Assembly: GCF_034259325.1 (NCBI RefSeq)
Contig: NZ_JAXIVS010000013.1
Span: 1 to 64,000 of the forward strand
From: Hyalangium ruber
GTDB taxonomy: Bacteria; Myxococcota; Myxococcia; Myxococcales; Myxococcaceae
Direction of reading: 5' to 3'
Length of the DNA stretch: 64,000 nucleotides
Made by a program: the position numbers and the translations under genes
Shown here: positions 3,392-49,495 of the stretch, piece after piece
Position numbering within the stretch: position 1 is the first letter of the stretch
Layout: every line of letters begins with the position of its first letter
The notes under the pieces: model-generated
The model's database searches: none
What the model saw: the letters and a program-made list of their open reading frames with translations, nothing else
Told to the model about the DNA's origin: nothing

Positions 3392-4165
3392 GTGGTGAGC
3401 GAGGCCTCCAATGAATGGCCTGTCCTGGCGGAGAGGTGCTTTCACGCGCTCGATCGCAACAGAGTCAGGTTTCGCGATGTGACCGGAAGATGCGCAGTTG
3501 CCTCTGCGCCTGCGGTTGCCGCGACTCTGGGGGGCGTCGGGCTCTGCCTTTTTGCGTCGCCGGTCGTCGTCACTGGGGCAGTGATTGTGATTGGGACCGT
3601 GGTGGTGGCGGTTGTCATCAAGGAGGGCCTGGATGCCTATGAACGGAGCGCATCCCGTGAGCGTGCGAAGCCCGAGACTCAGGCGCGGCCATCCAATGCG
3701 GAGGAACCCGTGGCGAACGGCGAGCCCATGCCGAGAGGCTTGGGCCGGGATTGGGTTCCCCCAGATCCGTCAGACCTGGAGCCGCGCGAACGCCGCCCCG
3801 AATGCACGCCCAAGCGGGTTCCTCCCAAGGGTGGAAATAACACGCATAACAGGTGCGCTGACAGAATCCCCTTCAATGCCGTCCCTGGCGCTAATGCGCT
3901 TGTCAATGGTAAGGCATTCGACGGGTGGCAAGTCGTCGCGGGCGTGCTTTGGAAAGTCAAGACAGACAACTTCGACTCGTACCCACAAGAGCTTCAAGAC
4001 ATCGTGATCAGAAAGAATGTGCGTGACTTCTTGACCGAGCTAGAGCTTGCGAGGGCATGCGGATTCAACTTCCGGGTTGGCGTGCGAAGCGCCACGCATA
4101 AAGCCATGCTGGAAACCGCCGAACGGCGACTCCAGGGCCTTATCGTCCTCATGGATTGGTGCTGA
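3392..4165 (+). CDS. DUF6310-like protein (toxin-like), N-terminally truncated
   Basis: The sequence resembles the Myxococcota family DUF6310: an ERCFHALD / RFRDVTGRCAVAS start, a long hydrophobic segment (about residues 38-75), a Pro/Glu-rich linker and a C-terminal domain with CADR, a VLWKVKTDNFD motif and ACGF.FRVGVRS. Family members, as I recall them, begin with a lipoprotein leader and continue into PxxxxCVVxEAS. Here the match starts immediately after the TAG of the preceding gene (in frame, PLPGTCVVSEAS), so about 50 leader residues are missing. The recalled family motif is LWE(V/I)KT, a possible PD-(D/E)XK-type signature; this copy has Lys in place of Glu (AAA at 3953). The GTG at 3392 has no convincing ribosome binding site. 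Probably a decaying toxin. Confidence 0.6.
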   Translation: MVSEASNEWPVLAERCFHALDRNRVRFRDVTGRCAVASAPAVAATLGGVGLCLFASPVVVTGAVIVIGTVVVAVVIKEGLDAYERSASRERAKPETQARPSNAEEPVANGEPMPRGLGRDWVPPDPSDLEPRERRPECTPKRVPPKGGNNTHNRCADRIPFNAVPGANALVNGKAFDGWQVVAGVLWKVKTDNFDSYPQELQDIVIRKNVRDFLTELELARACGFNFRVGVRSATHKAMLETAERRLQGLIVLMDWC

Positions 4166-4166
4166 A

Positions 4167-4928
4167 ATGCCTGCCACGCAGAGGAACCAAATCGGTATGA
4201 TCGTCTATGCGCCCGCGCTCGTGGGGGATGATAGCCGCACCTTGGCTGTAGTTCGTGGGATGGAGCGCGCACGGCCTGGCTTGCGCATCGGGTTGATGAT
4301 TTCCGATGAGGGGCAACTTATCCGGTTGCCGGATCGCGATGCCTTCGTCGCCCGAGAGGGCCGTCGTGGGGAAATGCCGCCGCTGCGCAGTACCGATGAT
4401 AACTTCCGAGTGAGCGTAACGGGATGGGGAATTCCGGCGGGGCTTTGCCCTGGCGGCCGGGCTCAGTTTGAATTCCATGTGGCGCTGCCGCTGTCCGCTG
4501 AAGGCAGCGCTGCCGCGGAGGTTTTGCTGGAAGCCGTAGGGGAGAATGGAAGCGCGTTCTGGGGGCACGCGACGCCGGTCAGCGCGGCTGTGGACATCGC
4601 ACGCCAGACGAAGAATCTACCGGACGATTTAGAGCCGCCTCCCCGCAGGCTGCCTGTAATCAAGTCCCCGAGTGCCATGCGTTCGCCGGAGATTCCCTAT
4701 TACCTTGGGTGGCTGAACTACTGGTCTGCCGCTGCCGCACGAGCCATCGGGTTCCCGGATCCTGCTCGCGACGCTGAGCTGCTCTCGCGGGCGCGGCGCA
4801 CGGAATCGGGCGGGTGGGTGGTGCAGCTCACCGATGCGCCGCTCGACCTCGACAACCCCGCCCACCTGGACGCGCTGAAGCGGACCTACGAGCGCTTCCC
4901 GGAGATCGGCGGGCGCGCGGTACGGTAA
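4167..4928 (+). CDS. DUF5953-like protein, probable partner/immunity of the DUF6310 protein
   Basis: The 253-residue protein begins one base after the stop of the DUF6310-like gene (ATG at 4167); the longer open frame starting at 4047 overlaps that gene and is not needed. It matches the family that habitually follows DUF6310 genes in myxobacteria: an IVYAPALVGDDSR start, VVRGMERARPGLR, SDEGQLI, and a very conserved C-terminal half with LGWLNYWSAAAARAIGF and GGWVVQLTDAPLDLDNP. No signal peptide is visible, so it is probably cytoplasmic. A role as immunity protein is inferred from the fixed gene pairing. Unlike its partner it looks intact. Confidence 0.65.
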   Translation: MPATQRNQIGMIVYAPALVGDDSRTLAVVRGMERARPGLRIGLMISDEGQLIRLPDRDAFVAREGRRGEMPPLRSTDDNFRVSVTGWGIPAGLCPGGRAQFEFHVALPLSAEGSAAAEVLLEAVGENGSAFWGHATPVSAAVDIARQTKNLPDDLEPPPRRLPVIKSPSAMRSPEIPYYLGWLNYWSAAAARAIGFPDPARDAELLSRARRTESGGWVVQLTDAPLDLDNPAHLDALKRTYERFPEIGGRAVR

Positions 4929-5009: not shown

Positions 5010-5894
5010 CTAGTACGTGCAGCGCAGGACCTGGCGGTAGGTGCCGCAGTGGCCGAAGTCCGTCGTGCCCGCGGGCTGCGAGTGGTAGCAGCTGTAGACG
5101 GTGGGGTCGCAGTCGGGGCTGGGCCAGACGTCGTAGGCGTCGCCATCGGTGACCGCGAACTCCGTCACGCGAGCGACGAGGCGCGCTGTCTTCTGCATGG
5201 CCACGCCGTCATCGGCGCCCGCGCTGAAGGTGAGCGGGACGGTGTGCGGGTCGATGGCCTGGTACAGCCCCGAGTACGACCAGTCGAGGCGGTAGCTGGG
5301 CCGGCCGTAGACCTGCGGGATGTCGTCGGGCGCCGTGACGGAGAGCCAGTCCACGTACCCGGACACCGAGGCGTGGCCGCGATAGAGCAGGTTCGTGTTG
5401 CCCTGAACGACGTAGCGGGGGTTCACCGCCTCGTCGATCCAGATGCCGCTGTCGCCGCGGAAGTCGAAGAACCGCGGGGCAATCACGATGCGCGCGGTGT
5501 ACGAGCGCGGCGTGCCCGTGAAGGTGTCGACGCGGACGAAGAGCGGCAGGCCGGAGAGCACGGTGTTGAGCTCGTGGCCCTCGTGGAGGACGATCTCGAA
5601 CCGGCGCTCGCTGATGATGTGCGCGTCCCCGAAGGCGTCGTCGGGGACGAAGCTCAAGACGCCCGAGAGGAAGCGGTTCGCGGTGGCGCGGATGATGAGG
5701 GCGCGGCCACCCTCACGTTCCTCGAAAGTACCGAGCGTCTCGAAGCTGAGCTCGTTGTCGCCCACCGAGGCGTAGAGGCGGGTGGCCGTCACCGCAGCGG
5801 TGCTGACGCCGGTCTCCTCCTCGGTTTCGGGAATCTCGTTGGTACAGGCCGAAAGCGCGGCGAGGCTCGCGAGGGCGAGGGTACGTAGTTGCAT
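5010..5894 (-). CDS. Lipoprotein of unknown function
   Basis: The 294-residue protein begins with a signal peptide and lipobox (LAALSAC). The ATG at 5894 has a purine-rich GGAG upstream; the longer open frame to 6137 runs through a tmRNA-like fragment and is not credible. The mature protein is rich in beta-type sequence (ERRFEIVLHEGHELN, SYTARIVIAPRFFDF) and ends in a Cys-containing tail (HCGTYRQVLRCTY). No enzymatic motif stands out. It converges with the DUF5953 gene across about 80 bases. Confidence 0.7.
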   Translation of the reverse strand: MQLRTLALASLAALSACTNEIPETEEETGVSTAAVTATRLYASVGDNELSFETLGTFEEREGGRALIIRATANRFLSGVLSFVPDDAFGDAHIISERRFEIVLHEGHELNTVLSGLPLFVRVDTFTGTPRSYTARIVIAPRFFDFRGDSGIWIDEAVNPRYVVQGNTNLLYRGHASVSGYVDWLSVTAPDDIPQVYGRPSYRLDWSYSGLYQAIDPHTVPLTFSAGADDGVAMQKTARLVARVTEFAVTDGDAYDVWPSPDCDPTVYSCYHSQPAGTTDFGHCGTYRQVLRCTY

Positions 5895-6056: not shown

Positions 6057-6084
6057 GCGGCGGGTTCGATTCCCGCCGCCTCCA
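6057..6084 (+). repeat. tmRNA (ssrA) 3'-end-like fragment, copy 1
   Basis: The sequence can form a T-arm (CGGG TTCGATT CCCG) followed directly by CGCCTCCA, which looks like the 3' acceptor strand and discriminator base of a tmRNA or tRNA. No matching D-arm, anticodon arm or 5' acceptor strand is present upstream. Similarity to the copy near 49.4 kb may extend weakly to about 6035. It is read as a leftover att-type fragment rather than a working RNA gene. Confidence 0.6.
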
Positions 6085-6093
6085 TGCAGCACG

Positions 6094-6135
6094 AAACCCC
6101 GTGGCGCCAGCAAGGTGCCACGGGGTTTTCTTTTC
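6094..6135 (+). terminator. Rho-independent terminator
   Basis: An 11-base perfect stem (AACCCCGTGGC at 6095-6105 pairing with GCCACGGGGTT at 6117-6127) is followed by a T-rich TTCTTTT run. It lies ten bases after the tmRNA-like fragment on the same strand, where a terminator of an RNA gene would be expected. Confidence 0.75.
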
Positions 6136-6140
6136 ATCCG

Positions 6141-6201
6141 AGACCGCCTCTCGCCGCGTGTCGGGGCTGAGGTGGGCGTAGCGCTCGGTGGCGTGCCCCA
6201 G
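6141..6201 (-). pseudogene. Remnant of a tyrosine recombinase (integrase) C-terminus
   Basis: On the minus strand one frame reads LGHATERYAHLSPDTRREAV. This matches the end of XerC/D-type phage integrases, where LGHA...RYAHLSP contains the last conserved residues including the tyrosine. About five residues that normally separate LGHAT from RYAHLSP are missing, and everything upstream is replaced by unrelated sequence. It sits next to the tmRNA-like fragment, where integrase genes of ssrA-targeting elements usually end. Confidence 0.6.
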
Positions 6202-6241
6202 CGCTCACCGCTTGAGCCAGTAGGAAGGACGACGGGTGAGC

Positions 6242-6420
6242 AAGGCCGCCATTGCAGTGCAGATAGAAAGCCCGCAGATCGGGATCCAGTCGCCAGCCCA
6301 CGCGTTGCTCGAACTCAGCGATCTCGGCAGCCGTTGCGGGCGGATACGGGAAGTGCTCGCGTGAAACTTCCTCAAGCAGTTGGGACTCCGGGGCAGAGCT
6401 TTCCCAAGGAGAAGGCAGAC
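6242..6420 (-). pseudogene. Remnant of a SUKH/SMI1-KNR4 family protein
   Basis: The minus strand encodes a segment with AEIAEFEQRVGWRLDPDLRA and FYLHCNGGL, the characteristic first half of SMI1/KNR4 (SUKH) domains. SUKH proteins are common immunity proteins of polymorphic toxin systems. The match stops at about 6242, where sequence leading into the integrase remnant begins, so the C-terminal half is missing. Upstream of about 6420 no start and no homology is evident. Judged to be non-functional. Confidence 0.55.
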
Positions 6421-6536
6421 GTTTATGACACAGTAGTAGTAGTAGAAGCTTGTCGGAGAATCGGCCAGGAGTATCTTCCTTGTACAGGTAGCCCGAGTCC
6501 GCGCTCAGCTGCTCGGGCAATACTGTACACAAGAGA

Positions 6537-7106
6537 CTACCGACTGATGGTAGCGCCCACCGTGCCTCCACACTCCGCAGAGGTGTAGCAGCCAGCATGC
6601 AGTTTGTACGTCCCGGCCGCGGGGGCCCTGTAGGCAATCTTCGAGCCATAGCCGCCGCAGGCGTCATCGCTGTATGCCACCCGCAGGCCACTTGGGCCAT
6701 AGAGTCGCAAGAAAGTGTCATCATAAGGGGATCTCCTGGTTGAGGCCCCCGACACGCCGCAAGTGCCCACCGTAAGAAGCTGACCGGCTTGGAGGGAGAA
6801 GGACCAATTCTTCGTGTTCTGCAACGCATTGTTGGTGTTAGTGGTAGTGTAGCTGTACACGGCGGAGAGGGGCCTGACGTCACTGGCATGGAGCATATCC
6901 CCCAGGTCGATCACCTCCTCGTCCGGAGTGGGCGACACGGACTCAATCGGCAGAGCCTCTCCCGTATCCTGCGGCTTGGCCTCCCTCGCGTCTGGATCGG
7001 TGGTCTCAGGCGCCTCGGGCTTCATGTCTTCTGGGGCAGGGCCGCACCCAGCGACAAGGATGACTCCGAGGACGAACAAGCACGCGCGGTTGAGTCCAGT
7101 TTTCAT
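6537..7106 (-). CDS. Lipoprotein with a PPC-like beta domain
   Basis: The 189-residue protein starts with a signal peptide and lipobox (ILVAGC) and has AGGAAAC seven bases before its ATG. An acidic, Pro-rich linker (residues 22-75) leads to a C-terminal domain with WSFSLQAGQLLTVGTCG, YDDTFLRLYGPSG and YKLHAGCYTSAECGG. This pattern is typical of pre-peptidase C-terminal (PPC) domains found in secreted myxobacterial proteins. Four or more cysteines could form disulfides. No catalytic domain is present. Confidence 0.65.
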   Translation of the reverse strand: MKTGLNRACLFVLGVILVAGCGPAPEDMKPEAPETTDPDAREAKPQDTGEALPIESVSPTPDEEVIDLGDMLHASDVRPLSAVYSYTTTNTNNALQNTKNWSFSLQAGQLLTVGTCGVSGASTRRSPYDDTFLRLYGPSGLRVAYSDDACGGYGSKIAYRAPAAGTYKLHAGCYTSAECGGTVGATISR

Positions 7107-7246
7107 GAATGTTTCCTTTGAGAGAGGGGCGTGAACTGGTGTTGGGGTTGTTGTCCAGTTCGTAGCGGAATCTCGTACCCGGTCCGCACACCAGCCAGCC
7201 GCCCAGAAAGGCAGTCTTTTGTGTTATACTGGGCTTTCCTGAATGC

Positions 7247-7402
7247 TTGATCGATGATGGCATCGTTCTCGACATGCGCCCCATGAAGGGCGCCCGGGTC
7301 GATCCCGTCTGCCGCGTGGTGCGCGCCCAGGCCGGTCTCACCTGGGGTGAGTTGGCGGAGAGGGTGGAGAAGCCATTGACCGGACTTCCGAGGCGTATAG
7401 AC
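7247..7402 (+). pseudogene. Remnant of a FAD-binding (PCMH-type) oxidoreductase
   Basis: One frame reads DDGIVLDMRPMKGARVDP followed by RVVRAQAGLTWGEL. This is the highly conserved FAD-binding block of BBE/FAD_binding_4 oxidases, usually in the middle of a protein of about 450 residues. Similarity ends abruptly near 7350 and a stop occurs at about 7402. Nothing upstream or downstream continues the protein, so it is a gene fragment. Confidence 0.6.
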
Positions 7403-7770
7403 AGGATAGGAGTATAGGCAGGATAGAGGCGATGTGGAGGGTGAGGGCAGGAGCGGAGGTGACGTGAAGGGCCGCTGACTGGGGTCGCCCGAGCAGTGAG
7501 CCAAGCGGGTTGACAGGCCGCGCAGCCCCTTGGAGTACACGCCGGCCCTGGCTGCCCTCCTATGAGGTGCGCGGCAGGGGCTTGGCTCTCCTGGCCCTGG
7601 CAGCTTGAGCCTCAACAGCACGCGGCCTGAGGGGGCCCGCGCGCCGGGGCTCGCCTCGCACCTGCCGTGGGCAAGCCCAAGTGCTCCAGTATCGCTCGCA
7701 CTCCCCTGCCTGCCTTCACGTACGCCAAGACCCGCCGCCTGCCTCCACACCTCACGCAGGCGAACACGTC

Positions 7771-8022
7771 GGCGGAATTGGCAGCGCGGCGCCATCGTTG
7801 CGGCTCCAGCTCAGCCCCGGGGGCACACCAGGACAGCAGCCATCGCCGCGCTCAGCTCGGGCAGCGCTTTTCAGAACGGCGCTTTCAGAACGGCGGCGGA
7901 ATTGGCAGCGCGGCGCCTTTCAGAACGGCGCCGCGAATGGCGGCGCGGCGCCATGGTTGGCGCTCCGGCCCGGCCCGGTGGCGCTCCGGGGCAGCGGCCA
8001 TCGCTGCGCCCAGCTCGCGGGA
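7771..8022 (+). repeat. Imperfect direct repeat of about 95-130 bp
   Basis: Two copies begin with GGCGGAATTGGCAGCGCGGC (7771 and 7893). Both continue with related stretches ending in CAGC(A/G)GCCATCGC(C/T)GCGC and (C/T)CAGCTCG. The second copy carries an extra block of about 35 bases rich in TTTCAGAACGGCG motifs, also present just before it. Long open frames cross the region in several phases, but none looks like a protein. The origin is unknown. Confidence 0.5.
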
Positions 8023-8043
8023 AGGCCGGAAGGCCGTACGCCG

Positions 8044-8247
8044 ATGATGAACGGGCAGAGGAGGTCGGACAGGCTCGTAGTACCGACGAAGCTGCCGAAC
8101 AAGGCCAGCGGTACGGCTGCGGAGGTGGTGGAGGGAAGGAGCCTGGCCAAAGAGAAGGTGGGAGAGCAAAACACGCCCCGGACCCAGCACCGGACACAGC
8201 GTGCCCAGTGCGCTCGCCTGCCTACGCGACGCAGCAGTGCGCTTTGA
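8044..8247 (+). pseudogene. Group II intron reverse transcriptase (LtrA-like), N-terminal remnant
   Basis: From the ATG pair at 8044/8047 the frame reads RRSDRLVVPTKLPNKA, then EVVEGRSLAKEK, then QNTPRTQ. This is the recognisable beginning of group II intron-encoded reverse transcriptase/maturases (R-S-D-x-x-VVP-x-K-x-PNK, VEGR-x-x-K, T-x-RTQ). After about 8205 the match jumps frame (SVPSALACLR) and then stops. The reverse transcriptase, maturase and endonuclease domains are absent, and the intron 3' domains follow almost directly. Confidence 0.65.
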
Positions 8248-8350
8248 CGTCAGCATCCGAGGCAAGAGCCCAGTGCGGTAACTCTGCTCGCTGGGATCTG
8301 TGCGGGGGGCGGCCCGAGCCTGTACGGCGAAGGGCCGTCCCTACCGCGAC
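8236..8350 (+). ncRNA. Group II intron 3' end (domains V and VI), remnant
   Basis: The stretch AGAGCCCAGTGCGGTAAC...CTGGGATCT (8265-8298) folds as a domain V-like hairpin. It is followed by TGTGCGGGGGGC and a second hairpin (GGCGGCCC / GGGCCGTCC) ending in CTACCGCGAC, as expected for domain VI and the 3' splice junction near 8350. I recall very similar 3' ends in many bacterial group II introns. Because most of the intron ORF is deleted, it could move only if helped by another intron's protein. Confidence 0.55.
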
Positions 8351-8363
8351 CGAGGAAACAGGG

Positions 8364-8780
8364 ATGAACACGCCCGCGCACCAAGACGCCCCCACGATGT
8401 TCTACCCGCTGAACCCCTGCGGCCATCTTCGCGGCCCCGAGGGCGGCTGCATCGGCTTTCCAGAGTGCAAGCGCGAGCCTGTGAGCGCCGACAAGATGGG
8501 GCCGCTCGTGCAGCGAGCTGGCGAACTCCGCGCGCGGCTCTTGGACCATCCTTCCCTGGCGTTCACGCGAGAGGGCCGCGCCGCCGTTGCGGACAAGCTG
8601 GGAGCGGCGGTGACTGTGGCCGAGTGCCTTAACGTGGTGCTGATCAGCCAGCTCGACGACAGGGCCGCCATGACGACGGAGGAACAAGCGACGCTGGCCA
8701 CCATCGGCGCGAACGTGGAGATGCGGGTGCGGGATCTCCGCGAACTCTTCACGGCATGGACTGCAGCGGGCCAATCCTGA
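8364..8780 (+). CDS. Small hypothetical protein with N-terminal cysteines
   Basis: The 138-residue protein starts at the ATG at 8364; the open frame continues upstream to 7605 but only through repeat and intron sequence, so the longer version is rejected. The N-terminus has CGHLRGPEGGCIGFPEC, a spacing that could bind zinc or form disulfides. The rest is a predicted helical domain (LRARLLDHPSLAFTREGR, EMRVRDLRELFTAW). No signal peptide and no recognised family. It follows the intron remnant by about 14 bases and is followed by a tmRNA-like fragment on the same strand. Confidence 0.5.
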   Translation: MNTPAHQDAPTMFYPLNPCGHLRGPEGGCIGFPECKREPVSADKMGPLVQRAGELRARLLDHPSLAFTREGRAAVADKLGAAVTVAECLNVVLISQLDDRAAMTTEEQATLATIGANVEMRVRDLRELFTAWTAAGQS

Positions 8781-8914
8781 AGCCCGGGGGAGCACCCGCT
8801 GTGCGGTCGGGTCCTCCGTCATGTTGCACGTATGTCGCAGGAACGTGCGGAATGGGCTGGAACAGGACGGGACGAGACGGGACGCGGCGGGATATCGACT
8901 CCCAAGCATGCTGG

Positions 8915-8990
8915 GCGGTTACGAGGTAAGGACGCGATTCTGCTAGGAGTTTCGCACCGCCCGGCGCGGGTTCGATTCCCGCCGCCTCCA
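8915..8990 (+). repeat. tmRNA (ssrA) 3'-end-like fragment, copy 2
   Basis: The last 25 bases are identical to copy 1 over the T-arm and acceptor strand (GGGTTCGATTCCCGCC then GCCTCCA). Upstream, the segment GAGGTAAGGACGCGATTCTG...GCTAGGAGTTTCGC aligns with copy 4 near 49.4 kb for roughly another 50 bases, so the shared block is about 75 bases. The 5' part of a tmRNA is absent. Sequence after the discriminator A differs between all copies. Confidence 0.6.
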
Positions 8991-9095
8991 CAGAGCAGCG
9001 AGAGTTGTAGCAATGCTCTGGCCGCCATCAGGCGAGCCGGGGTTTTCTTTTTCCCCTGAAGCCGCCAGAGGCAGCCAGGCGGATGAGACCGGGAC

Positions 9096-10550
9096 TCAGC
9101 GGAAGTCCGGCGGGCTCGATGTGGGCGGAGGCTTGCTGGGCGGAGTGAGGGCAGGGGCGTAGCACCGGCCTTGGCTGTACACCCAGCCGTTCTCCGCGCA
9201 CTCCTCGGCAGTCATCGGGAGGGTCTCCCCCCAGCAGGCTCCGTTGATGGCCACCTGCTTGCGGCCTGGGCAGTGGCCCTTCTCGTCGGGTCGGGTCTGC
9301 CCGGGAAGAGGCTTGGGAGGCATGTCCCGGGCCATGGCCTCCGTCTTGGAGGGGAGATGGATGGAGGCCAGGGGAGCGGTTGGCGCGGAGTCCCCCACGG
9401 CGGCAGTGCCCGCATCGGGCACCTCGGAAGCAGAGGACTGCTGCCCGCGCACGGCCAGCCGCTCGAGTCGTGCATGCACTGCCTGCAAGGCCCCCACGAG
9501 GATCCCGAGCATCCCCAGCGTGGCCAGGGCCAGCCAGGGTCTCCACGCCAGGACTCGCGTCGGGGTTGGTGCGGGGGCAAGGGGTTGCTCACGGGGCAAG
9601 GGCGAAGGCTGCGGTGCCTGCTCGGTGCGCAGAGGGAGATCGGCCTCCGGGCCCGCTTGCTCCACGGCGGCTTCCAGAGCGTCGGCGAACTCCGCCGCCG
9701 TGCCACGGGCCTCGGGAGACTCCGAGAGGAGGCGGAGGATCCCCTCCCGCAGCCGTGGGTGTACTTGGGGAGTGCGCTCCAGGAAGGGCCGCGGATCCGG
9801 GCACAGCAGGTGCCAGGACTCCGCCTCATCCTGATAGGGCGCCATGTCCGGGAGGTACTCGCCCGTGACGAGGCGGAAGGCCGTGACGCCCAGGGAGAAC
9901 AAGTCATCGGCCGGAGTGGCCGGGTAGTAGGAATCGCGGGCACGAACGGAGGCCAGCAGGAACAGGCTGGCCTGGGGAGAGCGGTAGGCGACAGTGCCCG
10001 GAGGCAGGGATTGCCACGTGAGGCGGTGGGCTTCCTGGAAGTGGCCCGCGCCGAAGTCGATGAGCACTGCCCGGCCGTCCGAGCGACGCACCAAGACGTT
10101 GGCGCCCTTGACGTCGCGGTGGACGGCATTGGCGGCATGGGTGGCGGCAAGCGCGCGAGCCACCTGGGCCAGCAGTCGGAGCACCTGCCTGCAGGAGGCG
10201 GAATGCTGCTCGGCCCAGGTGTAGAGCGGAGTGCCCTCCACCCACTCCATGACGAAGAAAGGGTGCTCCGCTCCGGAGGCGTGGCGCCAGAGCCCTTGGC
10301 CCAGCAAGCGCGGGACGCTCGGGTGGCGGGTACGAGCGAGCAGTCCCACCTCCCGCGCGAAGCGAGGATCCCCCGGGTACACAGCCAGCTTGAGGGCCAC
10401 AGGGCCTGAGTCTTCCAGGCCCACCCGGACGGCGCGGTAGACGACGCCGTAAGAGCCCTGGCCCTGTCGAGCCTCCACGCGCCAGTCGCCCACTTGAGTT
10501 CCCGGGAGGAGGAGAAGGGAAGGGTCCTCGGAGACGGACTTGGGGCGCAT
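9096..10550 (-). CDS. Membrane-anchored Ser/Thr protein kinase
   Basis: An N-terminal kinase domain (about residues 15-290) carries GQGSYG (P-loop), VALKLA (catalytic Lys), HRDVKGANVLV (catalytic loop) and DFGAG (Mg-binding); the APE motif is replaced by YRSPQ. A Pro-rich linker precedes one membrane segment (LALATLGMLGILVGAL). The exterior domain ends with a Cys motif (HCPGRKQVAINGACWGE...CAENGWVYSQGRCY) seen in several myxobacterial kinases. The ATG at 10550 has AGAGG upstream. A GTG at 10580 (ten residues longer) also has a purine-rich site and is possible. All residues needed for catalysis seem present. Confidence 0.85.
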   Translation of the reverse strand: MRPKSVSEDPSLLLLPGTQVGDWRVEARQGQGSYGVVYRAVRVGLEDSGPVALKLAVYPGDPRFAREVGLLARTRHPSVPRLLGQGLWRHASGAEHPFFVMEWVEGTPLYTWAEQHSASCRQVLRLLAQVARALAATHAANAVHRDVKGANVLVRRSDGRAVLIDFGAGHFQEAHRLTWQSLPPGTVAYRSPQASLFLLASVRARDSYYPATPADDLFSLGVTAFRLVTGEYLPDMAPYQDEAESWHLLCPDPRPFLERTPQVHPRLREGILRLLSESPEARGTAAEFADALEAAVEQAGPEADLPLRTEQAPQPSPLPREQPLAPAPTPTRVLAWRPWLALATLGMLGILVGALQAVHARLERLAVRGQQSSASEVPDAGTAAVGDSAPTAPLASIHLPSKTEAMARDMPPKPLPGQTRPDEKGHCPGRKQVAINGACWGETLPMTAEECAENGWVYSQGRCYAPALTPPSKPPPTSSPPDFR

Positions 10551-10653
10551 GAAGGGACCTCTCGATGGAGGAGGAAACACCGCTCTCCTCTCCGAGGATC
10601 CTATGTTGTACGTAGGCAGCCGTCAGCAGACTTTAGCAGTCGTGCTCTGGCGT

Positions 10654-11043
10654 TCACACGTCCTTGGGCGCGGTGGCCTTCATGGCCTCCTTCACCTTCT
10701 GACGCAGGGCCTGCTTGCGCTGCTTGAACTGCTGCCGCTGCTCCTCGGACAGCTGGCCGCCGCTGGCCTGGCGCTGGGCCTGGACCTCCTGACGCAGCTG
10801 CTGGGCCTCGGCCTTGAACTGATCCGCCTGGGCCTGGGTGAGGCGGCCATTCTCCACCGCGCGCGAGAGCTTGTGCTCCATGCGGCCCATGCCGCCGTGG
10901 CGCCTCCCGCCTTTCTTGCCCTCATGGCACTCGCCCTGAGTCTGGGGCTGGCCCTCCGTGGGGGCGACGGGCGCGGCGAACGCAACGGTGGACAGCAGCA
11001 GCGAGGAGAGGGCAGCGGACAGCACGGCGATCTTGAGGCGCAT
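10654..11043 (-). CDS. Spy/CpxP-like small periplasmic protein
   Basis: The 129-residue protein has a cleavable signal peptide (about 23 residues, ending AFA-AP). The mature part is helical and strongly charged: a Gly/His/Arg-rich segment (GGRRHGGMGRMEHK), then LTQAQADQFKAEAQQLRQEV and QQFKQRKQALRQKVKEAM. This resembles the LTxxQ-type helices of Spy/CpxP-family periplasmic chaperones, which act in envelope stress. It lies about 70-100 bases downstream of no gene and upstream of the kinase, on the same strand, but a common operon is not evident. Confidence 0.6.
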   Translation of the reverse strand: MRLKIAVLSAALSSLLLSTVAFAAPVAPTEGQPQTQGECHEGKKGGRRHGGMGRMEHKLSRAVENGRLTQAQADQFKAEAQQLRQEVQAQRQASGGQLSEEQRQQFKQRKQALRQKVKEAMKATAPKDV

Positions 11044-48405: not shown

Positions 48406-48460
48406 TGGAGGCGGCGGGAATCGGACCCGCGGCGAGGGGCGAGGCGGCAACCTGCTCGCG
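48406..48460 (-). repeat. tmRNA (ssrA) 3'-end-like fragment, copy 3
   Basis: On the minus strand the end reads CGCGGGTCCGATTCCCGC then CGCCTCCA, the T-arm and acceptor block of the other copies with one loop change (TTCG to TCCG). It lies directly after the stop of the alpha/beta hydrolase on the same strand. Weaker similarity (TTGCCGCCTCGCCCCTCGCC) precedes it. No 5' half of an RNA gene is present. Confidence 0.5.
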
Positions 48461-49393
48461 TCAGGTGCTCGCGAGCGCCCCCTCGATTGCCTCGAAGACG
48501 AGTGTCGGCGCATCGATCCAGGGCGCGTGCCCGGCATCTGGAATCCGTACCATGCGCACCCGGGGGTTACTGGCCGCGACCGCCTCGCCCTCTTCGGGCG
48601 CTCCCCACGCGTCCTTCTCGCCCCACACGAAGGTCGTCGGCACCGACAGGTCCTTCCAGCGCGCAGAGAGCAGCAACTCCTTCTTCATCCCGAACACGTC
48701 GAAGGCCCGGTCGATCAGCGTGAACCAGCTCGCGGCATTGCGGAGCTGGCTCGCGGTCAGGGCATCGAGGAACTCGTCCTCCAGCCGTTCCGGATGCGCC
48801 ACGAGGAGTTGCTTCCAGAAGGCACGGCTGCTGTCGCGCGTGGGCCGCCGCATCATCGAGCGCACGAGCGCCTTGAGCCCCGGCAGCGTGCCCAGCCGCA
48901 TCTGCAAGGGTAGGGCGCGCGTGATCCCTGCTGGAGCCGCGACGAGCACCAGCCGAATCATCCGTTCCGGATGAGTCAGCGCGAAGTCGACAGCCCAGAG
49001 ACCTCCCATGGAGCACGCCACGATCGGCACGCTCGGGAGGCCCTCGGCGTCGAGGATGTCGCCGAGGAAGCGCCGCGAGTGCGCCAGCAGATCCACGCCG
49101 CGATAGTCGAATGGATCCGCCAGGCCGTGTCCGGGCCTGTCCACCGCCATCACGCGGTACTTCCGCGCGAGCGATGGCAGGAGGGGGCCCCACTGGAGCG
49201 CCTCACCCAGGCCGCCGTGGAGCAGTAGCAGCGGGGGGCCATCACCCAGCTCGATCGCCTGCGTCGAGCCTCCTGACCAGCGCACCCGGCGCGTGCGGTG
49301 TCCCGGGGCGCAGCGGTTGAGATAGGCAGCCTGGGCGGACTCGAGAGCACGGTCGAGTCCGCCAGCAGAATCGAGGAGGGGCGTGTTCTCCAT
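48461..49393 (-). CDS. Alpha/beta hydrolase
   Basis: The 310-residue protein has the alpha/beta hydrolase landmarks: LLLLHGGLGEALQWGPLL (oxyanion HG), VDRPGHG, VACSMGGLWAV (nucleophile Ser in S-M-G-G), FVWGEKDAWGAP (acid Asp) and DAGHAPWIDAP (catalytic His). There is no signal peptide. The substrate is not predictable. The ATG at 49393 is about 23 bases after a tmRNA-like fragment and the stop is directly before another, so the gene is framed by the two repeats. Confidence 0.88.
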   Translation of the reverse strand: MENTPLLDSAGGLDRALESAQAAYLNRCAPGHRTRRVRWSGGSTQAIELGDGPPLLLLHGGLGEALQWGPLLPSLARKYRVMAVDRPGHGLADPFDYRGVDLLAHSRRFLGDILDAEGLPSVPIVACSMGGLWAVDFALTHPERMIRLVLVAAPAGITRALPLQMRLGTLPGLKALVRSMMRRPTRDSSRAFWKQLLVAHPERLEDEFLDALTASQLRNAASWFTLIDRAFDVFGMKKELLLSARWKDLSVPTTFVWGEKDAWGAPEEGEAVAASNPRVRMVRIPDAGHAPWIDAPTLVFEAIEGALAST

Positions 49394-49415
49394 CCTGGGA
49401 GCTTACCGTCTTGAA

Positions 49416-49495
49416 TGGAGGCAGCGGGAATCGAAGCCGCAGCTCGGCGAGAGCAAAACCCCAAGCAGGTCGCGCTGTTACCGGCTAACGCGACG
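49416..49495 (-). repeat. tmRNA (ssrA) 3'-end-like fragment, copy 4
   Basis: On the minus strand this reads CCGGTAACAGCGCGACCTGC, then TTGGGGTTTTGCTC and CGGCTTCGATTCCCGCTG-CCTCCA. It aligns with copy 2 (8.9 kb) for about 75 bases with roughly 70 per cent identity by eye. The T-stem keeps pairing except for two changes. It directly follows the cupin gene stop on the same strand. Confidence 0.55.

What the first reader, a model, noticed from the sequence alone, without database searches (positions are those of the whole stretch)
6057..8990. 2.9-kb segment bounded by direct tmRNA-3'-like repeats and filled with gene fragments
Copies at 6057-6084 and 8915-8990 have the same orientation and an identical final 25 bases. 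Between them lie fragments of an integrase, a SUKH protein, a FAD oxidase and a group II intron, plus a lipoprotein and one small intact ORF. This is the expected look of a decayed integrative element at an ssrA-type site. The integrase fragment next to the repeat supports it.
Basis: partly seen in the sequence, partly recalled or inferred. Interest (0 to 1): 0.58.

Follow-up and report, generated by a model that had tools for sequence, protein, structure and literature searches.

The report
Mobile gene cassettes at tmRNA-end sites
The segment is one decayed member of a large family of mobile DNA cassettes in social soil bacteria that insert at copies of the end of one RNA gene, and some of these cassettes carry toxin and immunity genes of the kind such bacteria use to tell kin from non-kin.

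Summary
The repeats are real: 25 identical bases at 6060-6084 and 8966-8990, equal to the 3' end of this genome's tmRNA gene (ssrA, on another contig). They are not a private pair: the genome holds 52 copies at up to 3 mismatches (reversed-pattern control 0). Across 183 copies in seven genomes, 477 pairs share at least 100 bp on the left and 182 on the right, but only two share both, and both are ssrA itself: DNA changes exactly at the core. A sister locus on contig C16 equals the window around 8966 except for one extra 1,519-bp core-to-core cassette with a DUF6310 lipoprotein and DUF5953. Three integrase types sit beside cores, each with its own motif at fixed distances on both sides (one: 126 bp left, 46 bp right). 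The window's right end carries that motif (8822-8839). Small integrase-less cassettes carry polymorphic toxin/immunity genes, among them a SitA5/Imm52 pair with both arms. Best reading: an ssrA-derived attachment-site network in which tyrosine integrases move large elements and small non-autonomous cassettes; the segment is a decayed one. Mobility is inferred from sequence, not shown. Kind: accretion/CIME-like, in a dispersed variant not found in the searches made.

The parts
6060..6084 (+). left att core, identical to the tmRNA 3' end
6085..6145 (+). terminator-like flank resembling the DNA after this genome's ssrA (79% over 61 bp)
6136..6201 (-). integrase C-terminal remnant facing the core
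   Evidence: E 1.6e-7
6236..6340 (-). SUKH (SMI1_KNR4) immunity-type fragment
6537..7106 (-). ORF of 189 aa with PPC domain, lipoprotein-like start (my reading)
7253..7369 (+). FAD-binding oxidase fragment
8018..8352 (+). stretch with 87-93% relatives in G006 and G036; group II intron identity not confirmed
8364..8780 (+). intact 138-aa ORF, no Pfam hit; also in the C16 sister locus
8813..8965 (+). left arm of IntB type (family L0), conserved as a unit with the core in other genera
8822..8839 (+). IntB arm-type motif, exact, 126 bp before the core; the only hit in the window
8966..8990 (+). right att core; empty state of the site that holds a 1,519-bp cassette on C16
8991..9470 (+). right flank shared with C16:195796-195305 (88%) and C5:24424
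3392..4165 (+). DUF6310 gene (neighbour; relative of the C16 cassette cargo)
4131..4928 (+). DUF5953 gene (neighbour)
48406..49440 (-). two further cores (1 and 2 mismatches) 1,010 bp apart around an alpha/beta hydrolase gene

Best explanation
The segment is a decayed mobile cassette in a chromosome-wide network of att sites derived from the 3' end of ssrA. The shared core is the T-stem-loop plus acceptor end of tmRNA: a 7-bp TTCGATT centre between inverted repeats. At least three integrase types (called IntA, IntB, IntD here) use it, each with its own arm sites on both sides. An autonomous element reads core, right arm, integrase, cargo, left arm, core. Small elements keep one or both arms but lack the integrase and are inferred to be moved in trans or in cis. 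Exchange at cores builds arrays, swaps cassettes and leaves empty sites. Shown from sequence: the sites, exact breakpoints, arm geometry, pairing of arms, filled/empty pairs, cargo. Inferred: strand exchange by these integrases, trans mobilisation, present activity, and first arrival at places other than ssrA by insertion at poor matches. Part of the cargo is polymorphic toxin/immunity genes, so exchange would change a strain's kin-discrimination set (inferred).
For: 52 sites in the genome, control 0. 477 left-sharing and 182 right-sharing pairs, 2 sharing both, both ssrA. Two filled/empty triads inside single genomes, 1,519 and 1,497 bp. Arm motifs at fixed distances: IntB 126 bp left in 16 of 18 hits and 46 bp right in 11 of 11; IntA 123-125 and 69-70; IntD 102 and 63-64 mostly. 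Arms pair by type: right family R2 with L1 in 4 of 6 segments and R3 with L0 in 4 of 5, the rest with no family arm, none crossed. Integrase within 120 bp of an exact core, facing it, in 14 of 21 hits of seven genomes; core beside the integrase in 12 of 22 named-genome loci, next to a true tmRNA gene in two of them. Fewer mismatches in the 7-bp centre, 6 of 364 positions against 62 of 936, P 1e-4. Tyrosine integrase domains for IntA and IntB.
Against: No excision, circle or strain-level gain/loss seen. Many integrases are fragments: 6 of 11 IntB hits at R3 sites. 107 of 183 sites have a right flank without family relatives and 96 of 183 a left flank without, so many sites carry no recognised arm. 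7 of 21 integrase-family hits lie away from exact cores. IntD is only weakly integrase-like. The window's left site has no arm motif.
Confidence: 0.82

Rival explanations
1. A single decayed genomic island that once sat at ssrA and was carried here by rearrangement; other copies are ordinary tandem islands scattered by inversions.
For: The native right flank of ssrA lies 3.5 Mb from ssrA in G006; R1-type flanks such as the window's resemble the DNA after ssrA; tandem elements stand at ssrA in G007.
Against: Cores at an SDR locus have host DNA, not ssrA, on the left in four genomes, and 15 of 20 loci read there lack any core. Three integrase types with different arms are spread over many contigs.
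Confidence: 0.12
2. The network is a fossil: site-specific insertions happened long ago and today's shuffling is by homologous recombination or decay.
For: Many broken integrases and broken cargo in the window.
Against: Full-length integrases at two places 97% alike over 999 bp, exact cores, and different DNA behind the same core in related species. A 25-bp match is short for homologous recombination (recalled).
Confidence: 0.2
3. The cores are a transposable repeat (for example carried by an IS91-like element) unrelated to integrase action.
For: A 360-bp repeat found in almost all relatives lies in the segment (7412-7771).
Against: Breakpoints fall at the core on both sides, integrases and arm motifs stand at fixed distances, and the repeat is absent from most core flanks by the family clustering.
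Confidence: 0.04

Closest known systems
CIMEs and tandem accretion of ICEs/IMEs (PMC5704250, passages read)
   Same: Elements without integrase that keep att sites, and arrays formed when elements with the same specificity integrate at a resident att site.
   Different: Known cases are tandems at one target gene; here dozens of sites stand away from the target gene, elements are 1-3 kb, and three integrase types share one core.
Genomic islands at tmRNA genes (PMC4383910, search listing and start of abstract only)
   Same: Tyrosine integrase next to a copy of the tmRNA 3' end; true tmRNA beside the integrase in L085 and L093.
   Different: Those sit at the tmRNA gene; here most sites do not.
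Tycheposons (PMC10872708, passages read; original paper recalled)
   Same: Cargo moved by a tyrosine recombinase between pieces of a tRNA-like gene end.
   Different: Described there as 4-200 kbp with a tRNA at the border; here a tmRNA end, mostly 1-18 kb segments, many sites, arm sites of several integrases.
Integrons (recalled)
   Same: Arrays of small cassettes, same orientation, one recombination site each, supply of genes by a tyrosine recombinase.
   Different: Integrase is not an integron integrase by score (58-61 bits, cut-off 265); sites are attP-like with arm motifs, not attC-like.
SitAI toxin/immunity loci of myxobacteria (PMC5562445 and PMC8546572, passages read)
   Same: One cassette holds a SitA5-escort protein with Imm52; the paper says sitAI genes are often on prophage-like or other mobile elements.
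   Different: The passages name Mx-alpha prophages; the words tmRNA, integrase and att site occur 0 times in PMC5562445. Here the carrier is a small att-bounded cassette.

Membership tests
ssrA-targeting integrative element | Tyrosine integrase adjacent to the tmRNA 3' end at an intact tmRNA gene | tested here: met
   For the element family: L085 and L093. Not for the window's copy, which is away from ssrA.
ssrA-targeting integrative element | Element bounded by direct repeats of the gene end | tested here: met
   Window 6060 and 8966; 17 of 17 neighbouring pairs under 7 kb in the own genome same orientation
CIME / accretion | Keeps attL and attR, lacks integrase | tested here: met
   SitA5/Imm52 cassette C3:577136-580009 has both IntB arms and no integrase; window segment has only an integrase remnant
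CIME / accretion | Mobilised by an element with the same specificity | not testable with these tools
   needs an experiment; intact IntB genes are present on C6 and C16
Integron | Integron integrase (TIGR02249) | tested here: not met
   58.1 and 61.1 bits, cut-off 265
Integron | attC sites with single-strand structure | not tested
   arm motifs at fixed distances speak for attP-type sites
Tycheposon | tRNA at the border, tyrosine recombinase, 4-200 kbp | tested here: not met
   tmRNA end instead of tRNA, mostly small segments
SitA toxins | Member of a SitA family by NCBIfam model | tested here: met
   only for the C3 cassette: SitA5_escort 338 bits, cut-off 160; DUF6310 proteins have no SitA match and the C22 protein is below cut-off for SitA6, 21.5 against 85.75
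SitA toxins | TraA-dependent delivery and killing | not testable with these tools
   needs an experiment

The most novel reading that the evidence does not exclude
The cores form a working, integron-like exchange platform: several integrases share one ssrA-derived core and shuffle small toxin/immunity cassettes among dozens of chromosomal docking sites, and this is a main way these myxobacteria renew their kin-discrimination repertoire.
Probability: 0.3. Interest if true: 0.82.

Novelty: new variant of a known kind. Interest (0 to 1): 0.62.

Why it matters
Papers read here say that sitAI loci lie on prophage-like or other mobile elements; the passages seen give no recombination site for loci outside Mx-alpha. 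Here is a concrete, testable candidate: a defined 25-bp core, three integrase types and arm sites at fixed distances. It also shows one tmRNA end turned into dozens of docking sites per chromosome, while a tRNA-type core beside relatives of the same integrases stays at 0-7 copies per genome.

Tried and rejected
Single island at ssrA: disfavoured, 52 copies and ssrA itself apparently empty here. Empty site for the window from relatives: the gene at 5010-5894 is conserved but lies in a different context in each relative read, so it could not serve as a flank. Founder event: the SDR locus shows a full core in 4, half a core in 1 and none in 15 of 20 loci read, but the search for the native right flank met only dispersed repeats and distant pieces, and one search was asked on the wrong side (my error). 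A test for host-derived halves of cores gave no clear asymmetry; for genomes other than G000 the 21-mer used to find sites fixes the central bases, so conservation of the centre was counted on the 52 own sites only. SitA5 cassette in plasmids and viral contigs: nothing. Anti-phage defence as the main cargo: of 7 proteins given, one YhcG/DUF1016 protein matches PADLOC strongly, two weakly, four not at all. My simple gene caller misses lower-GC genes, so cargo lists are incomplete. The DUF5953 lists merge split hits and come from a table that was cut at its end.

Full report
What is there. The window lies on contig C13 of a 10.77-Mb genome in 43 contigs of a family whose named relatives are myxobacteria. 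Two exact copies of the tmRNA 3' end stand at 6060-6084 and 8966-8990; the true tmRNA gene is on C6 at 560311-560672. Between them lie remnants: an integrase tail, a SUKH piece, an FAD-binding piece, a PPC lipoprotein and an intact 138-aa ORF. The group II intron piece was not confirmed.

A family of sites. The 25-mer occurs 52 times at up to 3 mismatches in this genome, 18 of them exact, against 0 for the reversed pattern. Of 96 genomes of the family, 61 have at least one copy at up to 1 mismatch; genera g3, g7 and g8 carry 4 to 33 each, the own genome 26, the others 0 to 13. A tRNA-type core found beside relatives of the same integrases has 0 to 7 copies per genome in the same 96, so the many copies are a property of the ssrA core and not of the method.

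Exchange at the core. I collected 183 sites at up to 4 mismatches from 126 loci of seven genomes. Loci of relatives were taken around listed cores; not all cores of all genomes were fetched. 477 pairs share at least 100 bp on the left and 182 on the right; only 2 share both, both at ssrA. The median homology on the other side is 0 bp. At one locus, downstream of an SDR gene (my reading), G002 and G003 share 3,541 bp at 89% up to base 26 from the start of the core and nothing after it. In G002 and G003 ssrA is followed by a shared 294-bp flank; in G007 that flank lies behind further cores about 20 kb away.

Filled and empty. Window 8352-8989 equals C16:197928-197292 at 92.9%, and window 8966-9470 equals C16:195796-195305 at 87.7%; C16 has in between one 1,519-bp core-to-core cassette. 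It encodes a 214-aa DUF6310 protein with a lipoprotein-like start (my reading) and a DUF5953 protein. A second such triad lies in G007 with 1,497 bp. The window's own DUF6310/DUF5953 pair at 3392-4928 is a relative.

Integrases and arms. IntA and IntB are 72% identical, face the core, and pass the Phage_integrase cut-off. IntD is a 398-aa protein read away from the core with integrase matches below the cut-off, so its naming is less certain. An 18-bp motif is found 126 bp left of the core in 16 of 18 left hits and 46 bp right in 11 of 11 right hits; all 18 left hits are in family L0 (19 sites) and all 11 right hits in family R3 (12 sites); reversed and complemented controls give 0. IntA and IntD have other motifs at other fixed distances, with a few stray hits. 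Families pair accordingly: R2 with L1 in 4 of 6 segments, R3 with L0 in 4 of 5, the rest with no family arm, none crossed. This is the layout of a lambda-type attP (recalled). The window's right end carries the IntB motif at 8822-8839. In the 52 own sites the 7-bp centre has 6 mismatches in 364 positions, the rest 62 in 936.

Orientation. Neighbouring cores under 7 kb apart point the same way in all 15 pairs of the own genome within one locus, in two more across locus borders, and in 12 of 13 pairs of seven other genomes by exact 21-mer.

Cargo. Of 17 such segments in the own genome, six hold polymorphic-toxin-type genes: C16, C20 and C6 with DUF6310 and/or DUF5953, C3 with SitA5/Tox-REase-5 and Imm52, C18 with Tox-REase-5, C22 with DUF2380 and a sub-threshold SitA6 match. 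DUF6310 and DUF5953 have no assigned function in Pfam; toxin and immunity are my inference from the lipoprotein start and gene order. Others hold a sulfatase, an alpha/beta hydrolase, YhcG/DUF1016, a DUF4265 protein or unknown genes; not every gene was scanned. Relatives' cassettes hold an AHH nuclease, a Pre-toxin TG protein, Imm11, a NACHT protein, and LysR with an SDR or a hydrolase. DUF5953 genes lie near cores more often than expected: 7 of 15 within 2.5 kb in the own genome, expected 0.38, P 3e-8, and 19 of 120 within 5 kb in seven others, expected about 1.9. Most DUF5953 genes there are elsewhere, and G036 had 0 of 20, so cores are not their only home.

Seeding. At the SDR locus four genomes of genus g3 have a core with different DNA behind it; G007 has only the left part of the core, and 15 others of the 20 read have none. 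The DNA left of the core there is not ssrA. This fits arrival by insertion at a poor match followed by reuse, but the right junction was not found.

Literature. Searches in open PMC papers found no account of this (listings, with passages of PMC5562445, PMC8546572, PMC10047993, PMC10872708 and PMC5704250). Two papers on sitAI (PNAS 2019, ISME J 2020) are not held and could mention it.

Verdict. The segment alone is an ordinary decayed cassette; what it belongs to is a dispersed, multi-integrase variant of accretion with kin-discrimination cargo. Movement is inferred from sequence.

Noticed in passing
window 5010-5894: A conserved secreted-type gene (93-94% in six relatives) sits in a different gene context in each relative read, as if it moves on its own.
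   Followed up: partly
window 7412-7771: A 360-bp repeat found in most of the larger relatives' genomes at 73-94% identity; its frame resembles the end of an IS91-like transposase (my reading, untested).
   Followed up: no
L178, G006:C1:3187970: The flank that follows ssrA in two other species lies 3.5 Mb from ssrA in G006, next to a core; cores may act as points of large rearrangement.
   Followed up: no
L202:3200-3540 and L211:5059-5480: Right after the core at and near ssrA lies the C-terminal end of what looks like a fourth integrase type (my reading).
   Followed up: no
window 9015-10679: A protein kinase gene with 87-91% copies at C5:8703-10427 and C3:793662-795320; C5:24424 has another right behind a core.
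   Followed up: no
G003:C1:2106360-2106761: A second copy of the last 400 bp before the core of the SDR locus stands 14 kb further on, as if an element carried the target's end.
   Followed up: no
L075-L078, L083, L096: Relatives of these integrases stand beside tRNA-type cores (tRNA-Asp in L076, tRNA-Leu in L083 and L096); arm A-like DNA lies next to such a core in L077 (my reading).
   Followed up: partly
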